From contig CP014761.1 of NCBI GenBank assembly GCA_001647635.1, forward strand, positions 3,532,762 through 3,596,761: a stretch of 64,000 nucleotides of DNA, in the 5' to 3' direction. Shown here in pieces: positions 56,422 to 64,000 of this stretch (positions are counted from its first letter, which is position 1; every line of letters begins with the position of its first letter). The position numbers were made by a program, and so were the translations under genes. The notes beneath the pieces were generated by a model. The model did not search any database. It had not been told where the DNA came from and worked only from the letters and a program-made list of their open reading frames with translations. The stretch comes from Leifsonia xyli (GTDB lineage: Bacteria > Actinomycetota > Actinomycetes > Actinomycetales > Microbacteriaceae).

Positions 56422-57336
56422 ATGCGGCGCGTGGCTGCTGGCAGGGGAGCGAGTGCGATCGGGGCGTGGGCGCTCAGGGTGCTCATCGGAGTGGTTGTCC
56501 TGGCGGCGCTGCTGTCCATCGGCTTCGTGCTGTTCGGGGTGAGCGGGGAGACGCTCGGCCGCGTGATCAGCACCAACGTCGCGCTGGTGGTGTTCGCCCT
56601 CCTGGTGTGGGTGGACTCGGTCATCGGCCGGTACCGCCCGGACTGGTTCGAGCTGTCGTCCCTGGCGCTGGACGCGTACCTCCTGCTGCTGTGGATCGGC
56701 GTGATCTGGTTCGGCTCGTACTCGGCCGGTGACATGGTCGCGGCGTTCTTCCTGGGCCTGGGAACGCTGCTCTGGGTGCGCGCGATGATCGGGCTGGGCG
56801 ACCTGCTGCGGCTGCTCTGGAACCGCTGGCGCTCGCAGGCGACCGACATCATCGCGATCATCGGTCTGGCGGCGATCGCGCTGGTCGCCGTGCTGGTGAC
56901 GCTGCCCGCCCCGCAGCCGTTCCACGACTTCTGGGACCTCGACTACTACGGCCGCGTCATCGGCGCGATCAGCATCGTGGCCGGGGTGTGCTTCGTGCTG
57001 GTGCCGCTGTGGGGCCTGGTGAGCTCCCGCGGGCAGCGCCCCGCGGCGCCTGCGCCGGCGTTCGCGCCGCCCGCTGCGCCTCCGACGCCCGCCGCCTCTC
57101 CGGCGCCGGCCCAGCCCGCGCCGGTGGTCGCTCCCGCTCCGACCTTCGCGCCGGCTCCGGCCGCAACGCAGCAGCTCGCCTGGCCGCGCCTGCTCGACGG
57201 CCGCCCCGTCCCGGCCGGCCCGGACGGCCGACCCGACTTCACCGCGCTCGCACCGACGGACCGCCTGGCATGGCCGACCTTCGTGGACGGAACCCCCGTC
57301 CCGGCCGCCCCGGACGGCTCCCCGCTCTACCGCTGA
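56422..57336 (+). CDS. Membrane protein with Pro/Ala-rich tail
   Basis: A 304-residue protein with about six hydrophobic helices in its first 205 residues (VLIGVVVLAALLSIGFVLF; VALVVFALLVWVDSVIG; LLLLWIGVIWFG and others). A 45-residue Pro/Ala linker and two short copies of a W-P-x-L/F-x-D-G-x-P-V-P-A motif (WPRLLDGRPVPAGPDG; WPTFVDGTPVPAAPDG) follow. The duplicated tail looks like a small peptide-binding or surface module. No family is recognised. GAGGGG precedes ATG 56422. Confidence 0.8.
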   Translation: MRRVAAGRGASAIGAWALRVLIGVVVLAALLSIGFVLFGVSGETLGRVISTNVALVVFALLVWVDSVIGRYRPDWFELSSLALDAYLLLLWIGVIWFGSYSAGDMVAAFFLGLGTLLWVRAMIGLGDLLRLLWNRWRSQATDIIAIIGLAAIALVAVLVTLPAPQPFHDFWDLDYYGRVIGAISIVAGVCFVLVPLWGLVSSRGQRPAAPAPAFAPPAAPPTPAASPAPAQPAPVVAPAPTFAPAPAATQQLAWPRLLDGRPVPAGPDGRPDFTALAPTDRLAWPTFVDGTPVPAAPDGSPLYR

Positions 57337-57371
57337 GCGCACAGCGCTCGCGGTCGAAGCCAGGCACAAAA

Positions 57372-57410
57372 AAGGCCCTCTGATCAGAGAATCCCTGATC
57401 AGAGGGCCTT
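57372..57410 (-). terminator. Intrinsic terminator of tRNA-fMet
   Basis: The 16-bp arms 57372-57387 and 57395-57410 are perfectly complementary. Reading on the minus strand, the hairpin follows the tRNA 3' end by two bases and runs into six T residues. Confidence 0.9.
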
Positions 57411-57412
57411 CG

Positions 57413-57489
57413 TGGTTGCGGGGACAGGATTTGAACCTGCGACCTCTGGGTTATGAGCCCAGCGAGCTACCGAGCTGCTCCACCCCGCG
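57413..57489 (-). tRNA. Initiator tRNA-fMet (CAT)
   Basis: A 77-nt reverse-strand gene starting CGCGGGG and ending CCCCGC-A-ACCA with an encoded CCA. The unpaired C1 opposite A72 and the three G-C pairs flanking the anticodon loop (GGG-CTCATAA-CCC) are the hallmarks of the initiator tRNA rather than elongator Met. The T loop TTCAAAT is intact. The anticodon complement is at 57453-57455. It has its own promoter and terminator. Confidence 0.97.
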
Positions 57490-57501
57490 GCACAAGATGA
57501 A

Positions 57502-57531
57502 ACACTAGCACGGCTTTCGAGGCGCGTGAAA
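57502..57531 (-). promoter_or_regulatory. Promoter of tRNA-fMet
   Basis: On the minus strand TTTCAC (57531-57526) and TAGTGT (57507-57502) are 18 bp apart, about 12 bases before the tRNA 5' end. Confidence 0.6.
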
Positions 57532-57608
57532 TCGCGAACACCGCCCGGGCGCGTCCTCTCGTGTGGACCGGTCGTCCTACTAGAGTCGTGTCCAGAAAAG
57601 GGGATGCG

Positions 57609-58688
57609 ATGGCGAGTGCCGTGACGAAGTTCCGGGTGGTGGTGGTCGAGGACGACCCGGACGTGGCCTTCTTCATGAAGACCGTGCTGGAGAAGCGCGC
57701 GGACGCGGTGGCGATCGCCGTCACCGATCCGTCCATCGCCCTCGGGACGATCGACGAATTCGAGCCCGACCTCGTCATCACCGACATCGAGATGCCCGGC
57801 ATCTCGGGACTCGACCTCCTCAAGGAGCTGCGCAGCCAGCATCCGGGCCTGCCCGTGGTCGTGATGACCGCCCACGTCTCGGTCGACTACGCCGTCTCCG
57901 CGCTGCGCGCCCAGGCGGACGAGTTCCTGACGAAGCCCGTCGCCTCCGCCGAGCTGGTGTCGATCGTCAACCGCCTCGCCGCCGAAGGACGTGTCAAGCG
58001 CGCCGCGCAGCGTCAGCAGGTCGTGCTGGCCATCGGCGCGCATCCCGACGACGTCGAGATCGGGGTCGGTGGCATCCTCGCGGCCCACCGCGACGCCGGC
58101 AACCAGGTCGTCATCCTCACGATGTCACGCGGAGCCCGTGGCGGGGATGCGGACGACCGCCAGCACGAGTCCCTCGCTTCGGCCGAGCTCCTGGGCGCCC
58201 GGCTGTTTCTCGAGGACCTCGAGGACACTCAGATCTCCGCCGCCGACCCGACCGTCGGCATCATCGAGCGCGTCGTCGCGGAGGTGCAGCCGGACATCGT
58301 CTACACCCACTCGTCGCACGACCGGCACCAGGACCACCGTGCTGTCCACGCCGCCACGAATGTCGCGACCCGCAGCGTTCGCACGGTCTGCTGCTACCAG
58401 AGCCCGTCCGCCACGATCGACTTCCGGCCGACCCGGTTCGTCCCGATCGACGGTTTCACCGAGACGAAGCTGCGGCTCATCGACTGCTTCCGCTCGCAGA
58501 CCGAGCTGCGCGCCTACCTCGAGCCGGACTTCGTGCTCGCCACCGCACGCTACTGGTCGCGCTTCGGCGGCGGCAAGAACTGCGAGCCCCTGGAGGTGAT
58601 GCGCGACACCGCGGACATCTCGGTGCCCGCCTCCTCGCTCGAGAACTCCGCCCGCTACCCGTCCCGACTGAACAGGACAGCCGAATGA
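57609..58688 (+). CDS. Response-regulator receiver fused to PIG-L (LmbE-like) deacetylase
   Basis: A 359-residue fusion. Residues 8-125 form a CheY-like receiver with acidic pair D15/D16, phosphoacceptor D59 (DLVITDIEMPG), T87 (VVMTAH) and K109 (FLTKPV). Residues 137-340 form a PIG-L deacetylase with AIGAHPDDVEIGVGG (zinc ligands H145 and D148), TMSRGARGG and THSSHDRHQDHRAVH (third zinc His and helix). There is no DNA-binding domain, so the enzyme is the output. PIG-L enzymes de-N-acetylate GlcNAc-containing lipids, mycothiol precursors or glycans. Start ATG 57609 has AAGGGG upstream. It is the first gene of a six-gene operon with 4-bp overlap to the ATP-grasp gene. Confidence 0.92.
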   Translation: MASAVTKFRVVVVEDDPDVAFFMKTVLEKRADAVAIAVTDPSIALGTIDEFEPDLVITDIEMPGISGLDLLKELRSQHPGLPVVVMTAHVSVDYAVSALRAQADEFLTKPVASAELVSIVNRLAAEGRVKRAAQRQQVVLAIGAHPDDVEIGVGGILAAHRDAGNQVVILTMSRGARGGDADDRQHESLASAELLGARLFLEDLEDTQISAADPTVGIIERVVAEVQPDIVYTHSSHDRHQDHRAVHAATNVATRSVRTVCCYQSPSATIDFRPTRFVPIDGFTETKLRLIDCFRSQTELRAYLEPDFVLATARYWSRFGGGKNCEPLEVMRDTADISVPASSLENSARYPSRLNRTAE

Positions 58689-59698
58689 CCGACACCGAAC
58701 GAATCCGCGTCCTGGTCACGGGCGCCGGCGGCCCCGCCGGCGTCGCGGTGATCCGCTCCCTGCTGGCGCGGGACGACGTGGATGTGTTCGCCGCCGACAT
58801 GGACGGCTGGGCCAGCGGCCTCTACCTCGTCGCCGCCGACCGCCGACGGATCGTGCCGCCCGGACGCTCCGACGGGTTCGTGGATGCGCTCATCGGCATG
58901 AGCCGCGAGGACGGCATCGACGTGCTGTTCTCCACGGTCGACGTCGAGCTGCCCGGCCTCGCCGCGCGACGCGACGAGCTGGAGGCCGTCGGGACGAAGC
59001 TCGCCGCGCCGACCCTCGACACCCTTGTCACCTGCCTCGACAAGTTCGCGCTGGTCCAGCGGGTCGCGGGCAAGGCGCGCATCCCTGAGACCCGGCTGCT
59101 GAACCCGGAAGGCGTGGCCGCGGACTGGACGTTCCCGGTCATCGTGAAGCCCCGCTCCGGCGCCGGTTCGCGCGGTGTGCGCCTCATTCCGGATCGCGCC
59201 GCCCTCGAGGCGCTCGGCACCGACGAGAGCATCATCATCCAGGAGAACCTGCCGGGTGAGGAGTTCTCGGTGGACGTGCTCGCCGGCCTCGACGGCGAGG
59301 TGATCGCCGCCGTGCCGCGCTCGCGCGAGCGGGTCGACTCCGGCGTCTCGATCGCGGGCCGCACCGTCCGCCGGCCTGAGCTCTCGGACACGGCCGCAGC
59401 CGTCGCGCGGGCGATCGGGCTCACCGGCGTCGCCAACGTGCAGCTGCGCTACAGCACCGAGGGCGTGCCCGCGCTGCTGGAGGTCAACCCGCGCTTTCCC
59501 GGCGCCATGCCGCTGACGATCGCGTCGGGGGTCGACATGCCGTCGCTCCTGCTCGACCTGGTGCTGGGCCGCCCGGTGTCGTCCGCGGTCGACTTCGAGG
59601 AGCTCGCCAACGTGCGCTTCCTGGAGGACGTGTTCCTGCGTCCCGCCGACGTGCTGGTCTCCGAGAACGCCGCGCACACGGAGGGACCCGAGGAGTGA
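58685..59698 (+). CDS. ATP-grasp family ligase
   Basis: A 337-residue ATP-grasp protein with a carbamoyl-phosphate-synthetase-like core. The N-terminal Rossmann-like domain (VLVTGAGGPAGVAVIRSLLARDDVDVFAADMD) precedes the ATP-grasp fold (FPVIVKPRSGAGSRGVRLI, IIIQENLPGEEFSVDVLAG, LEVNPRFPGAMPLTIASG with the metal Glu and Asn). Members join a carboxylate to an amine or thiol through an acyl phosphate. The substrate is unknown. It overlaps both neighbours by four bases. A downstream role on the amine freed by the PIG-L deacetylase is a natural inference. Confidence 0.9.
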   Translation: MTDTERIRVLVTGAGGPAGVAVIRSLLARDDVDVFAADMDGWASGLYLVAADRRRIVPPGRSDGFVDALIGMSREDGIDVLFSTVDVELPGLAARRDELEAVGTKLAAPTLDTLVTCLDKFALVQRVAGKARIPETRLLNPEGVAADWTFPVIVKPRSGAGSRGVRLIPDRAALEALGTDESIIIQENLPGEEFSVDVLAGLDGEVIAAVPRSRERVDSGVSIAGRTVRRPELSDTAAAVARAIGLTGVANVQLRYSTEGVPALLEVNPRFPGAMPLTIASGVDMPSLLLDLVLGRPVSSAVDFEELANVRFLEDVFLRPADVLVSENAAHTEGPEE

Positions 59699-60483
59699 GC
59701 GGGACCGAGGCCGACCGCCTTCCCGCCCTGCTGCTGGGCGACTTCCACGTCCACTCGACGTTCTCGGACGACGCGCAGAGCACACTCGCCGAGAACATCG
59801 CGGCCGCCTCGGCGGCGGGTCTCCGCACGGTGCGGCTCACCGACCACGTGCGCGCCTCGACGACCTACGTTCCCGAGTTCCTCGCCGCCGTCGCCGCCGA
59901 GCGCGTGCCCGACGGGCTGACCGTCCTCACCGGAGTGGAGGCGAAGCTGCTGGACGCGTCCGGCGCCGTCGACACGCCCGCCGACCTGGTCGTCGGCCCG
60001 GGGGGAGTGGACGCGGTCGTCATCGGCGACCACCAGTTCCCCGGCACCGACGGGCCGTGGTCGCCGCGAGCGACCCGCGAGAAGCTCGACGCGGGCCTTT
60101 CGGAGGACGACGTGCTCGACCTCCTCATCGAGGCGAGCATCCGGGCGATGGAGCGGACCCGGAACGCCCAGCTGGCGCACTGGTTCTCGATCCTCCCCAA
60201 GATCGGGCTGGACGAGGCGCAGCTCGGCCCGGAGCGCCTGCTCGCCTGGGCCGAGGCCGCCGCCGCCACCGGCACGATCGTCGAGGTCAACGAGAAGTGG
60301 GCGTGCCCGGGGCCTGCGGCTATCGCAGCACTGCTGGACGCCGGTGCGCGTATCGTTGCCTCCACCGACAGCCACGTGGCGTCCGACGTCGGACGCTACG
60401 AGCGCGTCCCCGCCCTGTTGGAGGCGGCGGCCGCGCAGGTGGGCGCCGAACGGCGTCCCACGCAGCAGGAGGGAGCACGATGA
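59695..60483 (+). CDS. PHP-domain phosphoesterase
   Basis: A 262-residue PHP protein. Metal motifs are LGDFHVHSTFSDDAQ, RLTDHVRAS, TGVEAKLLD, VIGDHQFPG, HWFSILPKIG, EVNEKWACPG and ASTDSHVASDVGRYER. It is shorter and different in spacing from the YciV-like PHP protein at 31152-32024 and closer to histidinol-phosphatase-like PHP enzymes. GTG 59695 overlaps the ATP-grasp stop (GTGA). In the operon it would remove a phosphate from an intermediate or product; this is inference. Confidence 0.88.
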   Translation: MSGTEADRLPALLLGDFHVHSTFSDDAQSTLAENIAAASAAGLRTVRLTDHVRASTTYVPEFLAAVAAERVPDGLTVLTGVEAKLLDASGAVDTPADLVVGPGGVDAVVIGDHQFPGTDGPWSPRATREKLDAGLSEDDVLDLLIEASIRAMERTRNAQLAHWFSILPKIGLDEAQLGPERLLAWAEAAAATGTIVEVNEKWACPGPAAIAALLDAGARIVASTDSHVASDVGRYERVPALLEAAAAQVGAERRPTQQEGAR

Positions 60484-60638
60484 GTCCCGTCGAACCGTCG
60501 TCCGAGCTGCGCGAGCGCATCCAGGACGAGCTGGAGCGCAATCGGCGCTGGGAGTTCCGCCTGCCGCTGTACGCCGGGATCGCGGTGCTGGTGTGCGCGG
60601 CGATCATCGTGGTGCGGGTGGTGTTCCTCCATGTCTGA
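60480..60638 (+). CDS. Small single-pass membrane protein (52 aa)
   Basis: A 52-residue protein. A charged N-terminus (SSELRERIQDELERNRRWEFRLP) is followed by one membrane helix (LYAGIAVLVCAAIIVVRVVFLHV). It overlaps the PHP gene by four bases (ATGA) and the response-regulator gene by eight, so it is embedded in the operon. Size and topology suggest a regulator or partner of the membrane kinase or a membrane anchor for an operon enzyme. No family is recognised. Confidence 0.75.
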   Translation: MSPVEPSSELRERIQDELERNRRWEFRLPLYAGIAVLVCAAIIVVRVVFLHV

Positions 60639-61032
60639 CGCCGACGCCCGCGCCAAGCGCGTCGTGATCGCGGACGACGACGACGACATCCGCGGGCTCA
60701 TGACCATCGCCGCCACGCGCGCCGGCGTCGAGATCGTGGCCGCCGTGGACAACGGCCGCGCGGCGCTCGACGCGGTGCGTGCGGGGGATGTGGACCTCGC
60801 CGTCCTCGACATCTCGATGCCCGGCCTCAACGGGGTGGAGGTGGCGGAGGCCATCCGCTCGGACGAGTTGACGCGGTCCACGCTGATCCTCATGGTGTCC
60901 GCCTCGGTGCAGCTGCTGACCGACCACGGCGTGGTGGCCGACCGCTCCGACAGCTTCATCGTGAAGCCGTTCAGCCCGCGCGTGCTGTCGGCCCGCATCC
61001 GCGAGATGCTCGAGCTGGAGGAGCCCGCATGA
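60631..61032 (+). CDS. Stand-alone response regulator (receiver only)
   Basis: A 133-residue single receiver domain: acidic cluster IADDDDDIRG, phosphoacceptor in LAVLDISMPGLNG, S in LMVSAS, K in FIVKPFSP. There is no output domain, so it is CheY- or Spo0F-like and probably shuttles phosphate or binds a partner. ATG 60631 overlaps the small membrane gene by eight bases, and the stop overlaps the kinase start by four. Together with the receiver on the PIG-L protein this gives one kinase two possible receivers. Confidence 0.92.
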   Translation: MSDADARAKRVVIADDDDDIRGLMTIAATRAGVEIVAAVDNGRAALDAVRAGDVDLAVLDISMPGLNGVEVAEAIRSDELTRSTLILMVSASVQLLTDHGVVADRSDSFIVKPFSPRVLSARIREMLELEEPA

Positions 61033-62807
61033 CCATCGACCGCTGGCTGAGTCGCATCCCCATCGACTCGCCGTCGGCGTTCATGAAGCAGGTGCCGACG
61101 ATCGCCGGCTTCGCGATCGCGGCGATCATCGCCCTGATCCCGAACGGCGTGCCCGTGACGAACGTGCCGCTGTTCTGGGGCGGGATGGGGCTCGTCGCCA
61201 TCGCGTCCGTCCTTGCTGCGGTCGTGCCGTGGCGCCGGTTCCACAGCGAGTGGACCGTCGTGGTGCCGGTGCTGTCGCTGCTCGCGGTCGCCCTGCTGAG
61301 ACTGGGGACGGGCTCGTCCGTCTCCCCGTTCGCGGTGCTCACCCTGCTGCCCTTCGTCTGGATCGCGACCGAGGAGGGGAGGGTCAACATCCTCATCGCG
61401 GCGGTCGGCACGTTCATCGTGCTGTTCGCTCCGCTGGTGATCGATGGCGGTGCGCGCACGCCGGGCGATGTCGTCCGCGCCTTCTTCTCCCCGCTGATCT
61501 ACCTCATCGTCGCGATCGTCATCAACGAGATCGCGCACCGGATGCGGCTCCAGGTGAAGGCCGCGCACGAGTCGGCGGAGCAGCAGCAGGCGCTCCTGGC
61601 GCAGGCGGTCGTAGCGCAGGACGAGTTGGTGCTGAACGAGGCGCGCCTCAAGACCGCGAACCGACTCATCCAGAGCATCTGGAACGCCGTCACCGAGCAG
61701 TCCGTCATCGGCACCGACCTCGACGGCCTCATCGACGTGTGGAACCCGGGCGCCGAGAAGATGCTCGGCCTGACCGAGAAGCAGGTGCTCGACGGCAAGC
61801 ACCACGTCATCGACTTCCACCTGCACGAGGAGCTGGAGCAGCGCCTCCAGGAGATGGACGCGCGGTTCACGACCGTGTCGAGCATCGACGACTTCTCCGC
61901 GCTGGTGGACACGGTGCGTGCCGGATCGGCGGACGTGCGCGACTGGACGTACGTGCGTCCCGACGGCAAGCGCGTCGCCGTGCAGGTCGCCGCGACGCCG
62001 CGCCTGGACGAGAACGGGCACCGCGTCGGCTTCATCTTCGTGGCCACCGACATGACCCAGGCGCGCGAGTTCGCCCGGCTGAAGGACGAGTTCGTCGGGC
62101 TGATCTCGCACGAGCTGCGCACACCGCTCAGCTCGATCCTCGGCTATCTGGAGCTCATGCGCGACGACGACGAGTCGCCGCTCTCGGAGGAGCAGCTTCA
62201 GTACCTCGGCGTCGCGGAACGCAACGCGCACCGTCTGCTGCGCCTGGTCGGAGACCTGCTCTTCACGGCCCAGGTGGAGTCGGGGCGCTTCCCGCTGGAG
62301 ATCAAGGACGTCGACCTCGGCGGCGTCGTGTCGACCTCCGTCGAGTCGTCGGCTCCGGTGGCCGCAAACGCGGGCGTCACCCTGGTGAGCGAGGTCCCGG
62401 ATCGGCCGGTGGAGGTGCGGGGCGACCCGGTGCGACTCGGGCAAGCGGTCGACAACCTCGTCTCCAACGCGCTCAAGTTCACACCACGCGGCGGAACGGT
62501 CACCGTGGCGCTGCGGCCGGACGGCGAGCAGGCCGTGATCGCCGTGACCGACACCGGCATCGGCATCCCGGCGGTGGAGCTCAGCCAGCTCTCGCAGCGC
62601 TTCTTCCGCGCCTCGACGGCCACCCGCAACGCGGTGCCGGGCGTCGGGCTGGGCCTGACCATCACCAAGGCGATCGTCACCGCCCACGGCGGCCGGCTCG
62701 ACATCGCCAGCGAGGAGGGCGTCGGCACCTCGATCAGCATCGTGCTGCCGGTGGAGACGCCGCAGCCGGTGACCGAGGCGATCCCGCGGGCCGAGGTGAC
62801 GAAGTGA
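61029..62807 (+). CDS. Membrane PAS-domain sensor histidine kinase
   Basis: A 592-residue kinase. About five membrane helices lie in residues 20-170 with almost no extracytoplasmic domain, as in intramembrane or MASE-like sensors. A short coiled coil, a PAS domain (NRLIQSIWNAVTEQSVIGTD..LIDVWNPGAEKMLGL, about 205-335), HisKA (FVGLISHELRTPLSSILGYLEL, H361) and HATPase (DNLVSNALKFTPRGG; DTGIGIP; GVGLGLTITKAIVTAHGG) follow. It is the last gene of the operon, overlapping the response regulator by four bases and the nitrilase-like gene downstream by four. It is the presumed donor for both receivers. Confidence 0.93.
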   Translation: MTIDRWLSRIPIDSPSAFMKQVPTIAGFAIAAIIALIPNGVPVTNVPLFWGGMGLVAIASVLAAVVPWRRFHSEWTVVVPVLSLLAVALLRLGTGSSVSPFAVLTLLPFVWIATEEGRVNILIAAVGTFIVLFAPLVIDGGARTPGDVVRAFFSPLIYLIVAIVINEIAHRMRLQVKAAHESAEQQQALLAQAVVAQDELVLNEARLKTANRLIQSIWNAVTEQSVIGTDLDGLIDVWNPGAEKMLGLTEKQVLDGKHHVIDFHLHEELEQRLQEMDARFTTVSSIDDFSALVDTVRAGSADVRDWTYVRPDGKRVAVQVAATPRLDENGHRVGFIFVATDMTQAREFARLKDEFVGLISHELRTPLSSILGYLELMRDDDESPLSEEQLQYLGVAERNAHRLLRLVGDLLFTAQVESGRFPLEIKDVDLGGVVSTSVESSAPVAANAGVTLVSEVPDRPVEVRGDPVRLGQAVDNLVSNALKFTPRGGTVTVALRPDGEQAVIAVTDTGIGIPAVELSQLSQRFFRASTATRNAVPGVGLGLTITKAIVTAHGGRLDIASEEGVGTSISIVLPVETPQPVTEAIPRAEVTK

Positions 62808-63594
62808 GCGACGACCGTCCGGCCGAGCTGACGATCGACGACCGGACGATCGCCGTAGCGGTGGTGCAGTTCGCGCCGGGGGAGGACCGCGTCCACAACC
62901 GGGATGTGGTGTCGGGCTGATCGCGGTCGCGGCGCGGCGGCGCGCGCGTGGCTGGTACTCCTCCACTTCGTCGACCGCTGGGGGCGTCTTCGCCCGCAAC
63001 GCCGAGACACGACGGCGACTTCGTCGGCGCGCTGGCGCGGCGGCGCGCGAGCACGACCTGTGGGGTGGCGGCCGGCGAGAGACCGACGTGCCCCACAAGT
63101 TCTCCAACACCCTGGTCGCGGTCGATCCCGCTGGGGATGTGGTGGCGACCTACCGCAAGCAGCACCTCTACGACGCGTTCGGCGCGCAGGAGTCGGAGTG
63201 GGTCGTCCCGGGACCTGGACGCGCCCCAGACCTTCGCGGTCGACGGGATCGTGGGCTCCAGACCTGCTACGACCTGCGGTTCCCCCAAGCGCGCGCCTGC
63301 GGACGCAGGGGCGGAGCTCGCGGTCCCCGCCGAGTGGGTCCGCGGCGAGGAGCACGGACGACCCTCCTCGCCGCCCGCGCCATCGAGAATACGCTCTACG
63401 TCGCAGCGGCCGACCATCCGCCCGCGATCGGCGTCGGCGCGAGCGCCGTCATCGACCCGATGGGCGTGACGATCGCGGGCTTGGGCGAGACCACAGGCGT
63501 CGCCGTCGCCGAGGTGTCGTCCGCGCGGGTGCGCGAGGTGCGCGAGCGCAACCCCGCCCTGAGGCTCCGCCGGTACGGCGTCACGCCGCTCTGA
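62804..63594 (+). pseudogene. Carbon-nitrogen hydrolase (nitrilase family), many frameshifts as written
   Basis: The frame starts at GTG 62804, overlapping the kinase stop, with TIAVAVVQFAPGEDRVHNRDVV, a nitrilase-family N-terminus. It is then broken repeatedly: DGDFVGALA and AREHDL-like pieces around 63010-63060, FSNTLVAVDPAGDVVATYRKQHLYDAFGAQESEWVVPG (63099-63210, catalytic Lys), DLDAPQTFAVDGIV, LQTCYDLRFP (catalytic Cys), AGAELAVPAEWVRG and AARAIENTLYVAAADHPPAIG to the stop at 63594. The pieces are in the right order but in different frames. Either the gene is decayed or this stretch is poorly sequenced. Confidence 0.8.
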
Positions 63595-64000
63595 TCGCCG
63601 CCAACCGCCGCGCGGCCTCCTCCAGCACCTCCGTGCGCTTGCAGAACGCGAAGCGGACGAGGGATGCGGTGCGCGCCGCGTACTCGTCGCGCGCGAACGC
63701 GCCGAGCGGGACGGCGACCACGCCGGCCAGCTCCGGCAGCGCGCGGCACAGCTCCACCGCGTCCGGGAACCGAGCGGCGCCGCATCCGCCACGACGAAGT
63801 AGGTGCCGTCGGAGGGGAAGACTCCGAATCCGGCGGCGCGCAGCCCGTCGGAGAGCAGGTCTCGCTTGTGCGCGAGCGCGGCCGCGATCCCGGAGAAGTA
63901 GGAGTCCGCAGCCGCAGACCGGCCGCGATCGCCGGCTGGAAAGGGGCGCCGTTCACGAACGTGAGGAACTGCTTGACCGCCAGCACCGCGGTCACGAGCT
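63581..64000 (-). CDS. Aminotransferase class I/II, C-terminal part (partial, two frameshifts as written)
   Basis: The C-terminal 140 residues of a fold-type-I aminotransferase, the rest lying beyond the right edge. The minus strand reads VLAVKQFLTFVNGAPFQPAIAAGL, then after one missing G near 63907 DSYFSGIAAALAHKRDLLSDGLRAAGFGVFPSDGTYFVVADAAPLG, and after another near 63776 FPDAVELCRALPELAGVVAVPLGAF..VRFAFCKRTEVLEEAARRL. This resembles kynurenine or N-succinyl-diaminopimelate aminotransferases (DapC/YbdL-like). It overlaps the nitrilase-like gene tail-to-tail by 14 bases. Confidence 0.8.

What the first reader, a model, noticed from the sequence alone, without database searches (positions are those of the whole stretch)
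57609..62807. Six-gene signalling-to-enzyme operon: receiver-PIG-L, ATP-grasp, PHP, 52-aa TM protein, response regulator, PAS kinase
Seen: six genes on one strand with every junction overlapping by 4-8 bases, from 57609 to 62807, and no DNA-binding domain anywhere. Known: PIG-L deacetylates N-acetyl groups, ATP-grasp ligates a carboxylate to an amine, PHP removes phosphate. Inference: a membrane kinase controls, by phosphorylating receivers, a short pathway that deacetylates, ligates and dephosphorylates a small molecule or glycan. Coupling a phosphorelay directly to an anabolic or remodelling pathway within one operon is unusual, and I know of no described system with this composition.
Basis: partly seen in the sequence, partly recalled or inferred. 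Interest (0 to 1): 0.82.

Follow-up and report, generated by a model that had tools for sequence, protein, structure and literature searches.

The report
Signal-controlled sugar-modifying operon in actinobacteria
A gene set found in many soil actinobacteria wires a membrane signal sensor directly to sugar-modifying enzymes; in this genome its sugar-transferring enzyme sits elsewhere on the chromosome, and relatives that lost the pathway keep the signalling enzyme, often with a broken active site.

Summary
The six genes are real: the five junctions overlap by 4, 4, 4, 8 and 4 bases. A seventh gene, a nitrilase, follows but is not a core member. The six are not the natural unit. In relatives the order is REC-PIG-L, ATP-grasp, PHP, membrane GT2 glycosyltransferase, ~50-aa TM protein, receiver(s), histidine kinase. 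Leifsonia lacks the GT2 here; its own genome carries one about 1.75 Mb away. In 249 family genomes PHP and GT2 occur in the same 23. All 13 named loci with PHP but no in-situ GT2 have it elsewhere in the genome. 'Short' lineages lost ATP-grasp, PHP and GT2 but keep the kinase and REC-PIG-L; their PIG-L catalytic residues are broken in 8 of 15 loci (9 of 17 with two outliers), against 1 of 93 with the cassette, while receiver residues stay intact. So PIG-L catalysis belongs with the other enzymes, and its receiver has a separate signalling role. Best reading: phosphorylation gates the de-N-acetylase step of an amino-sugar glycan or glycolipid pathway. Membership in one pathway is well supported by genomics; phosphotransfer, substrate and product are inferred. 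Ten searches of an open-access library found no description.

The parts
57609..58688 (+). REC-PIG-L: receiver fused to a PIG-L (LmbE-type) de-N-acetylase domain, 359 aa
   Evidence: Pfam REC 101.4 bits, PIG-L 84.9 bits; receiver D59 and K109 in 104 of 104 relatives; own catalytic set intact
58685..59698 (+). ATP-grasp ligase-like enzyme, 337 aa
59695..60483 (+). PHP-family phosphoesterase-like enzyme, 262 aa, GTG start
   Evidence: Pfam PHP 39.1 bits; nearest PDB by sequence YcdX 1m65; H51, E82, H113, H162, D225, H227 in 103 of 103 relatives
60480..60638 (+). 52-aa single-pass TM protein
   Evidence: no Pfam hit; one hydrophobic segment 32-50; similar small TM genes follow GT2 or PHP in 82 of 127 annotated loci
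60631..61032 (+). stand-alone receiver, 133 aa
   Evidence: Pfam REC 74.2 bits; D60 and K112 in 96 of 96 receivers aligned from these loci
61029..62807 (+). membrane PAS histidine kinase, 592 aa, H361
   Evidence: Pfam PAS, HisKA, HATPase; five hydrophobic segments; H-box found in 94 of 96 kinases of these loci
62804..63594 (+). nitrilase (CN-hydrolase), frame broken by indels in the window; translationally coupled neighbour, judged not a core member
   Evidence: intact in L004 5616-6455; CN_hydrolase 165.5 bits; in 12 of 12 family genomes without the cassette that were tested

Best explanation
This is the Leifsonia version of a conserved actinobacterial system that couples a two-component signal to synthesis of an amino-sugar glycan or glycolipid at the cytoplasmic membrane. 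The membrane PAS kinase (H361) phosphorylates the receiver of REC-PIG-L and the stand-alone receiver (inferred). Phosphorylation switches the fused PIG-L de-N-acetylase, which removes an acetyl group from an N-acetylhexosamine unit (reaction inferred from the family). The ATP-grasp enzyme then ligates a carboxylate to the freed amine and PHP removes a phosphate (both inferred). A membrane GT2 of the cellulose/hyaluronan-synthase class, probably helped by the small TM protein, builds or transfers the sugar chain (inferred). In Leifsonia the GT2 is supplied from another locus. Shown here: gene order, co-inheritance of the enzymes, residue conservation, and decay of the PIG-L active site where the other enzymes are lost. 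Not shown: phosphotransfer, its effect, substrate and product.
For: Gene order kept across families: of 79 named loci with a called PHP gene, ATP-grasp directly upstream in 79, PIG-L in 76, fused REC-PIG-L in 73, GT2 in situ in 66, kinase near in 62. PHP and GT2 occur in the same 23 of 249 family genomes, 12 of 85 genera. GT2 elsewhere in 13 of 13 named loci lacking it in situ and in the own genome at 63% identity. PIG-L catalytic set intact in 92 of 93 REC-PIG-L with the cassette against 8 of 17 without; receiver set intact in 17 of 17 without. All breaks lie on the 21.9% of tree length that is short-type; at least six breaks by parsimony. GT2 nearest in fold to PcManGT, then hyaluronan and cellulose synthases; best NCBIfam model PgaC/IcaA, below cut-off. 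PIG-L nearest BshB in the PDB by sequence.
Confidence: 0.55

Rival explanations
1. A small-molecule pathway with mycothiol-like logic: sugar transfer, dephosphorylation (PHP), de-N-acetylation (PIG-L) and ATP-driven ligation of an amino acid to the amine (ATP-grasp) give a soluble or lipid-linked metabolite, not a cell-surface glycan. The phosphorelay sets its supply.
For: The four enzyme classes match the mycothiol steps (pathway recalled). PIG-L is nearest BshB, the bacillithiol deacetylase. ATP-grasp is near PylC and L-amino-acid ligases in fold. The own genome has no MshC above the curated cut-off (241.8 against 485.1 bits).
Against: The co-inherited transferase is a membrane GT2 with DxD, ED and QRLRW motifs, not a soluble GT4 like MshA (recalled). 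The absence of MshC was tested in one genome only.
Confidence: 0.2
2. The enzymes form one pathway, but the two-component part signals to something else: REC-PIG-L is mainly a scaffold or regulator, as in the short lineages, and phosphorylation does not gate de-N-acetylation.
For: Short lineages keep kinase and REC-PIG-L with a broken PIG-L site in 8 of 15 loci (9 of 17 with outliers) while receiver residues stay intact. Cassettes with PIG-L lacking a receiver exist (L021, L150).
Against: PIG-L catalytic residues are intact in 92 of 93 fused proteins with the cassette, and fused receivers are in 73 of 79 named loci.
Confidence: 0.15
3. Co-transcription of unrelated genes: the signalling genes and the enzymes share a promoter by chance of position.
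For: The nitrilase shows that overlap alone can join a gene that is present without the cassette.
Against: Covalent fusion of receiver to PIG-L in 73 of 79 named loci, order kept across families, and identical PHP and GT2 sets in 249 genomes.
Confidence: 0.05

Closest known systems
PNAG synthesis (PgaABCD / IcaADBC)
   Same: A membrane GT2 plus a small membrane protein needed for it (PgaC/PgaD: passages of PMC8461298) plus a de-N-acetylase; PgaC/IcaA is the best NCBIfam model for the GT2
   Different: GT2 far below the PgaC cut-off (128 against 422 bits); the de-N-acetylase is PIG-L and has no TM segment, while PgaB is exported and of another family (recalled); ATP-grasp and PHP have no counterpart; a two-component system instead of c-di-GMP
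Nod factor assembly (NodC, NodB, NodA)
   Same: Order of chemistry: GT2 chain synthesis, de-N-acetylation, N-acylation (recalled); NodC is the second NCBIfam model for the L057 GT2 (88.9 bits)
   Different: Below the NodC cut-off (550); PIG-L and ATP-grasp replace NodB and NodA folds (recalled); PHP and a phosphorelay are added
Mycothiol / bacillithiol synthesis
   Same: PIG-L de-N-acetylase followed by ligation to the amine (recalled); BshB is the nearest PIG-L in the PDB
   Different: Membrane GT2, ATP-grasp ligase; BshB1 and MshC cut-offs not met
Enzymatic response regulators such as CheB
   Same: Receiver fused to an enzyme, with the conserved Asp, Thr/Ser and Lys; CheB's control by phosphorylation is recalled
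   Different: The output is a PIG-L de-N-acetylase; control not tested; degrades to a likely pseudoenzyme in some lineages
Ter-associated ATP-grasp proteins (PF15632)
   Same: The ATP-grasp protein passes that Pfam cut-off (111.9 against 29.1 bits)
   Different: No Ter-family hit among the eight proteins scanned

Membership tests
Two-component system | HisKA + HATPase kinase and receivers with conserved phosphorylation residues | tested here: met
   Pfam; H-box in 94 of 96 kinases, receiver Asp and Lys in 96 of 96; fused receiver Asp and Lys in 104 of 104
Two-component system | Kinase phosphorylates these receivers | not testable with these tools
   needs a phosphotransfer assay
CheB-type enzymatic response regulator | Receiver fused to an enzyme domain | tested here: met
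   73 of 79 named loci
CheB-type enzymatic response regulator | Enzyme activity controlled by receiver phosphorylation | not testable with these tools
   needs an enzyme assay
PIG-L / LmbE superfamily | PIG-L fold with catalytic His/Asp residues | tested here: met
   84.9 bits against cut-off 28.2; residues intact in the window protein (roles of the residues recalled from MshB)
BshB1 (bacillithiol) | TIGR04001 cut-off | tested here: not met
   80.1 against 182.5 bits
PgaC/IcaA PNAG synthase | TIGR03937 cut-off | tested here: not met
   L057 GT2 128.2 and own GT2 115.1 against 422.3 bits
NodC | TIGR04242 cut-off | tested here: not met
   88.9 and 71.4 against 550 bits
Mycothiol pathway | MshC ligase (TIGR03447) in the genome | tested here: not met
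   best 241.8 against 485.1 bits; of 14 control genomes all ring, 1 above cut-off
PylC | TIGR03909 cut-off | tested here: not met
PRK12767 ATP-grasp | NF009402 cut-off | tested here: not met
   153.2 against 218 bits
Processive membrane GT2 | DxD, ED and QxxRW motifs with TM segments | tested here: met
   invariant in 24 of 24 GT2 aligned; own GT2 motifs and six hydrophobic segments
Processive membrane GT2 | Makes a polymer | not testable with these tools

The most novel reading that the evidence does not exclude
A response-regulator class whose output is a de-N-acetylase switches, by phosphorylation and without transcription, the key step of a membrane amino-sugar pathway with Nod-factor-like chemistry (chain synthesis, de-N-acetylation, ATP-driven N-acylation) built from other folds; in lineages that lose the pathway the same protein becomes a pseudoenzyme regulator.
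Probability: 0.25. Interest if true: 0.85.

Novelty: new variant of a known kind. Interest (0 to 1): 0.62.

Why it matters
A receiver fused to a de-N-acetylase would let a membrane sensor change the chemistry of a glycan or glycolipid directly, without new transcription, in common soil and plant-associated actinobacteria. The repeated loss of catalytic residues in short lineages is a natural experiment that separates the signalling role from the enzymatic one. The unlinked GT2 makes a clear prediction: deleting two distant loci in Leifsonia should give one phenotype.

Tried and rejected
Rejected: a second operon copy (overlap of the contig ends). Rejected: the nitrilase as a core member (it is in 12 of 12 tested family genomes that gave no PIG-L hit, and convergent with the aminotransferase in 10 of 12; in the other two no aminotransferase lay within the short stretch fetched). 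Rejected: simple relocation of the operon's own GT2 in Leifsonia (it groups with a second copy of another genus).

Corrections to my own labels: one search listed L105 and L018 as SHORT. L105 has ATP-grasp and PHP on the other strand and GT2 elsewhere; L018 has ATP-grasp and GT2 genes on the other strand nearby. L105, L137, L018 and L020 were dropped before the tree. In one search the operon copy of G320 (L189) was labelled 'alone'. The tree drawing failed on a grouping error after its numbers had been printed.

Led nowhere: no plasmid match for the ATP-grasp protein at E 1e-30; no promoter or terminator match upstream; independent pairs not informative. No PgaC or NodC chain was among the rows shown in the GT2 fold searches.

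Papers: searches found none; 23 (2 papers), 41 (7), 42 (18), 43 (53, 20 listed) and 95 (1) gave listings in which I saw no title or abstract start describing this system. I saw passages only of PMC12419801, PMC3765264 and PMC8461298. Two look-ups were not held. The library lacks most subscription journals.
Full report
WHAT IS THERE. The window is the last 64 kb of a single 3,596,761-base contig. The closest proteins to REC-PIG-L that carry a name are from Leifsonia, up to 93% identical. The six genes lie at the stated coordinates on the + strand, with overlaps of 4, 4, 4, 8 and 4 bases. Pfam gives REC + PIG-L, ATP-grasp, PHP, no hit for the 52-mer, REC, and PAS + HisKA + HATPase. A tRNA-Met lies at 57413-57489 on the other strand. 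The first 6.86 kb of the contig repeat window 57183-64000 at 99.1% identity, so this is an unclosed circle with one operon. In the contig-start copy a nitrilase overlaps the kinase stop by 4 bases and an aminotransferase converges on it.

THE NATURAL UNIT. Other genomes of the family showed a membrane GT2 of about 495-500 aa between PHP and the receivers. A scan of genome contigs with a PHP alignment found 162 relatives, of which the best 80 were kept. A PHP gene was called in 79 of the 80. Of these 79, ATP-grasp is directly upstream in 79, PIG-L before it in 76, fused REC-PIG-L in 73, GT2 in situ in 66, a kinase near on the same strand in 62 and a stand-alone receiver near in 67; ATP-grasp and PHP overlap by 4 bases in 67. 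Named holders include Microbacterium, Leifsonia, Leucobacter, Agromyces, Cellulomonas, Blastococcus, Nakamurella, Janibacter and Desertimonas. These 80 were chosen by PHP, so the counts do not measure how common the set is. In even draws, a PIG-L relative at E <= 1e-20 occurs in 9 of 296 genomes of the class and 43 of 249 of the family; the system is patchy.

GT2 FROM ANOTHER LOCUS. The own genome holds a GT2 with 63% identity at C1:1835470-1836927, about 1.75 Mb away, beside genes that look like flavin oxidoreductases (by eye); four genomes of the same genus have the same arrangement. In 249 family genomes PHP (E <= 1e-25) and GT2 (E <= 1e-60) occur in exactly the same 23 genomes, in 12 of 85 genera; kinship makes a simple p-value too small. 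14 genomes reached through named loci were then searched. The 13 with a called PHP gene and no in-situ GT2 (eight Leifsonia, two Cellulomonas, three MAGs) all have GT2 elsewhere at 49-65% identity; one is split over two contigs (63 and 72%). The 14th, L121, a deltaproteobacterial MAG with a 35% PHP match and no PHP gene called, has only a 27% hit. The Leifsonia GT2 groups with a second GT2 of another genus (SH-aLRT 100) inside operon GT2s of other genera, so it probably replaced the operon copy.

SHORT FORMS AND DECAY OF THE ENZYME. Some family lineages keep only REC-PIG-L, usually receiver(s), and kinase; none of their 15 genomes in the family draw has PHP or GT2 at the thresholds used. On the REC-PIG-L tree the full form spans the tree and the short forms of the family are nested. 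In 110 distinct REC-PIG-L sequences the catalytic set H145, D147, D148, H240, H243 is intact in 92 of 93 with the cassette and in 8 of 17 without. Two of the 17 are outlying (L018, intact, with ATP-grasp and GT2 genes nearby on the other strand; L020, broken); without them 7 of 15 are intact. The receiver set is intact in 17 of 17 short and 92 of 93 others, the one miss being an alignment gap. The one cassette-bearing exception, L104, has two copies: the broken one falls in a short clade, the other is intact. On a 71-row tree short-type branches are 21.9% of the length yet hold all breaks, at least six by parsimony; six of six would have a chance of about 1e-4 if breaks fell evenly over branch length. 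Fisher's test gives 5e-8 without regard to kinship. The independent-pairs test had three pairs and was not significant. That H240 and the others are catalytic is recalled from MshB. I read this as: PIG-L catalysis matters where the other enzymes are present, while the receiver keeps a signalling role without it.

RELATED GENE SETS. PIG-L, ATP-grasp and a GT2 also occur together, with other partners, in L080, L081, L083 and L022; in L022 an epimerase and a HAD hydrolase follow, perhaps in place of PHP. This recurrence supports the view that PIG-L, ATP-grasp and GT2 act in one pathway.

HOW IT LIKELY WORKS. Kinase to receivers; receiver state sets PIG-L activity; the freed amine is capped by ATP-grasp; PHP removes a phosphate; GT2 with the TM protein transfers or polymerises the sugar. 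Co-inheritance and the tie between PIG-L catalysis and the cassette rest on the results above; every reaction, their order and the phosphotransfer are inferred. Whether the product is a polymer, an oligomer or a glycolipid is open.

KNOWN OR NEW. The logic recalls PNAG synthesis, Nod factor assembly and mycothiol synthesis, but the curated models tested for those fail. The fusion resembles CheB-type enzymatic regulators. Ten paper searches gave no description. Database names such as 'LmbE family N-acetylglucosaminyl deacetylase/CheY-like chemotaxis protein' show that the fusion is annotated. I file it as a new variant of a known kind: two-component control, here apparently exerted on an enzyme of a glycan pathway.

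Noticed in passing
window 57183-64000 and contig start G000:C1:1-6863 (L004): The contig ends overlap (unclosed circle); the window's copy is indel-ridden from 62913 on, so genes there, including the nitrilase, look broken.
   Followed up: yes
L004 5616-7641; L194-L205: A convergent nitrilase/aminotransferase pair is found in 10 of 12 tested family genomes without the cassette; the cassette lies beside it in Leifsonia and between the two genes in several relatives, as if this were an insertion site.
   Followed up: partly
L022, L023: A different gene set has PIG-L, a second membrane gene (GT2 in L022), a small TM gene, ATP-grasp, then in L022 a UDP-GlcNAc 2-epimerase and a HAD hydrolase; L023 has the same order by gene lengths.
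   Followed up: no
L080, L081, L083, L018: PIG-L or REC-PIG-L near ATP-grasp and GT2 genes; L018, L081 and L083 also have a 339-390 aa gene without a Pfam hit, whose starts look alike by eye in L081 and L083.
   Followed up: partly
L104 6817-8988: Two tandem REC-PIG-L genes, the first with a changed catalytic residue and short-type in the tree, the second intact: a possible step towards the short form.
   Followed up: partly
L116, L144, L151, L153, L159, L162, L163, L164, L174: The Blastococcus loci have the cassette with a divergent receiver gene upstream and no kinase called nearby on the same strand.
   Followed up: no
window 57413-57489: tRNA-Met on the minus strand just upstream of the operon.
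   Followed up: no
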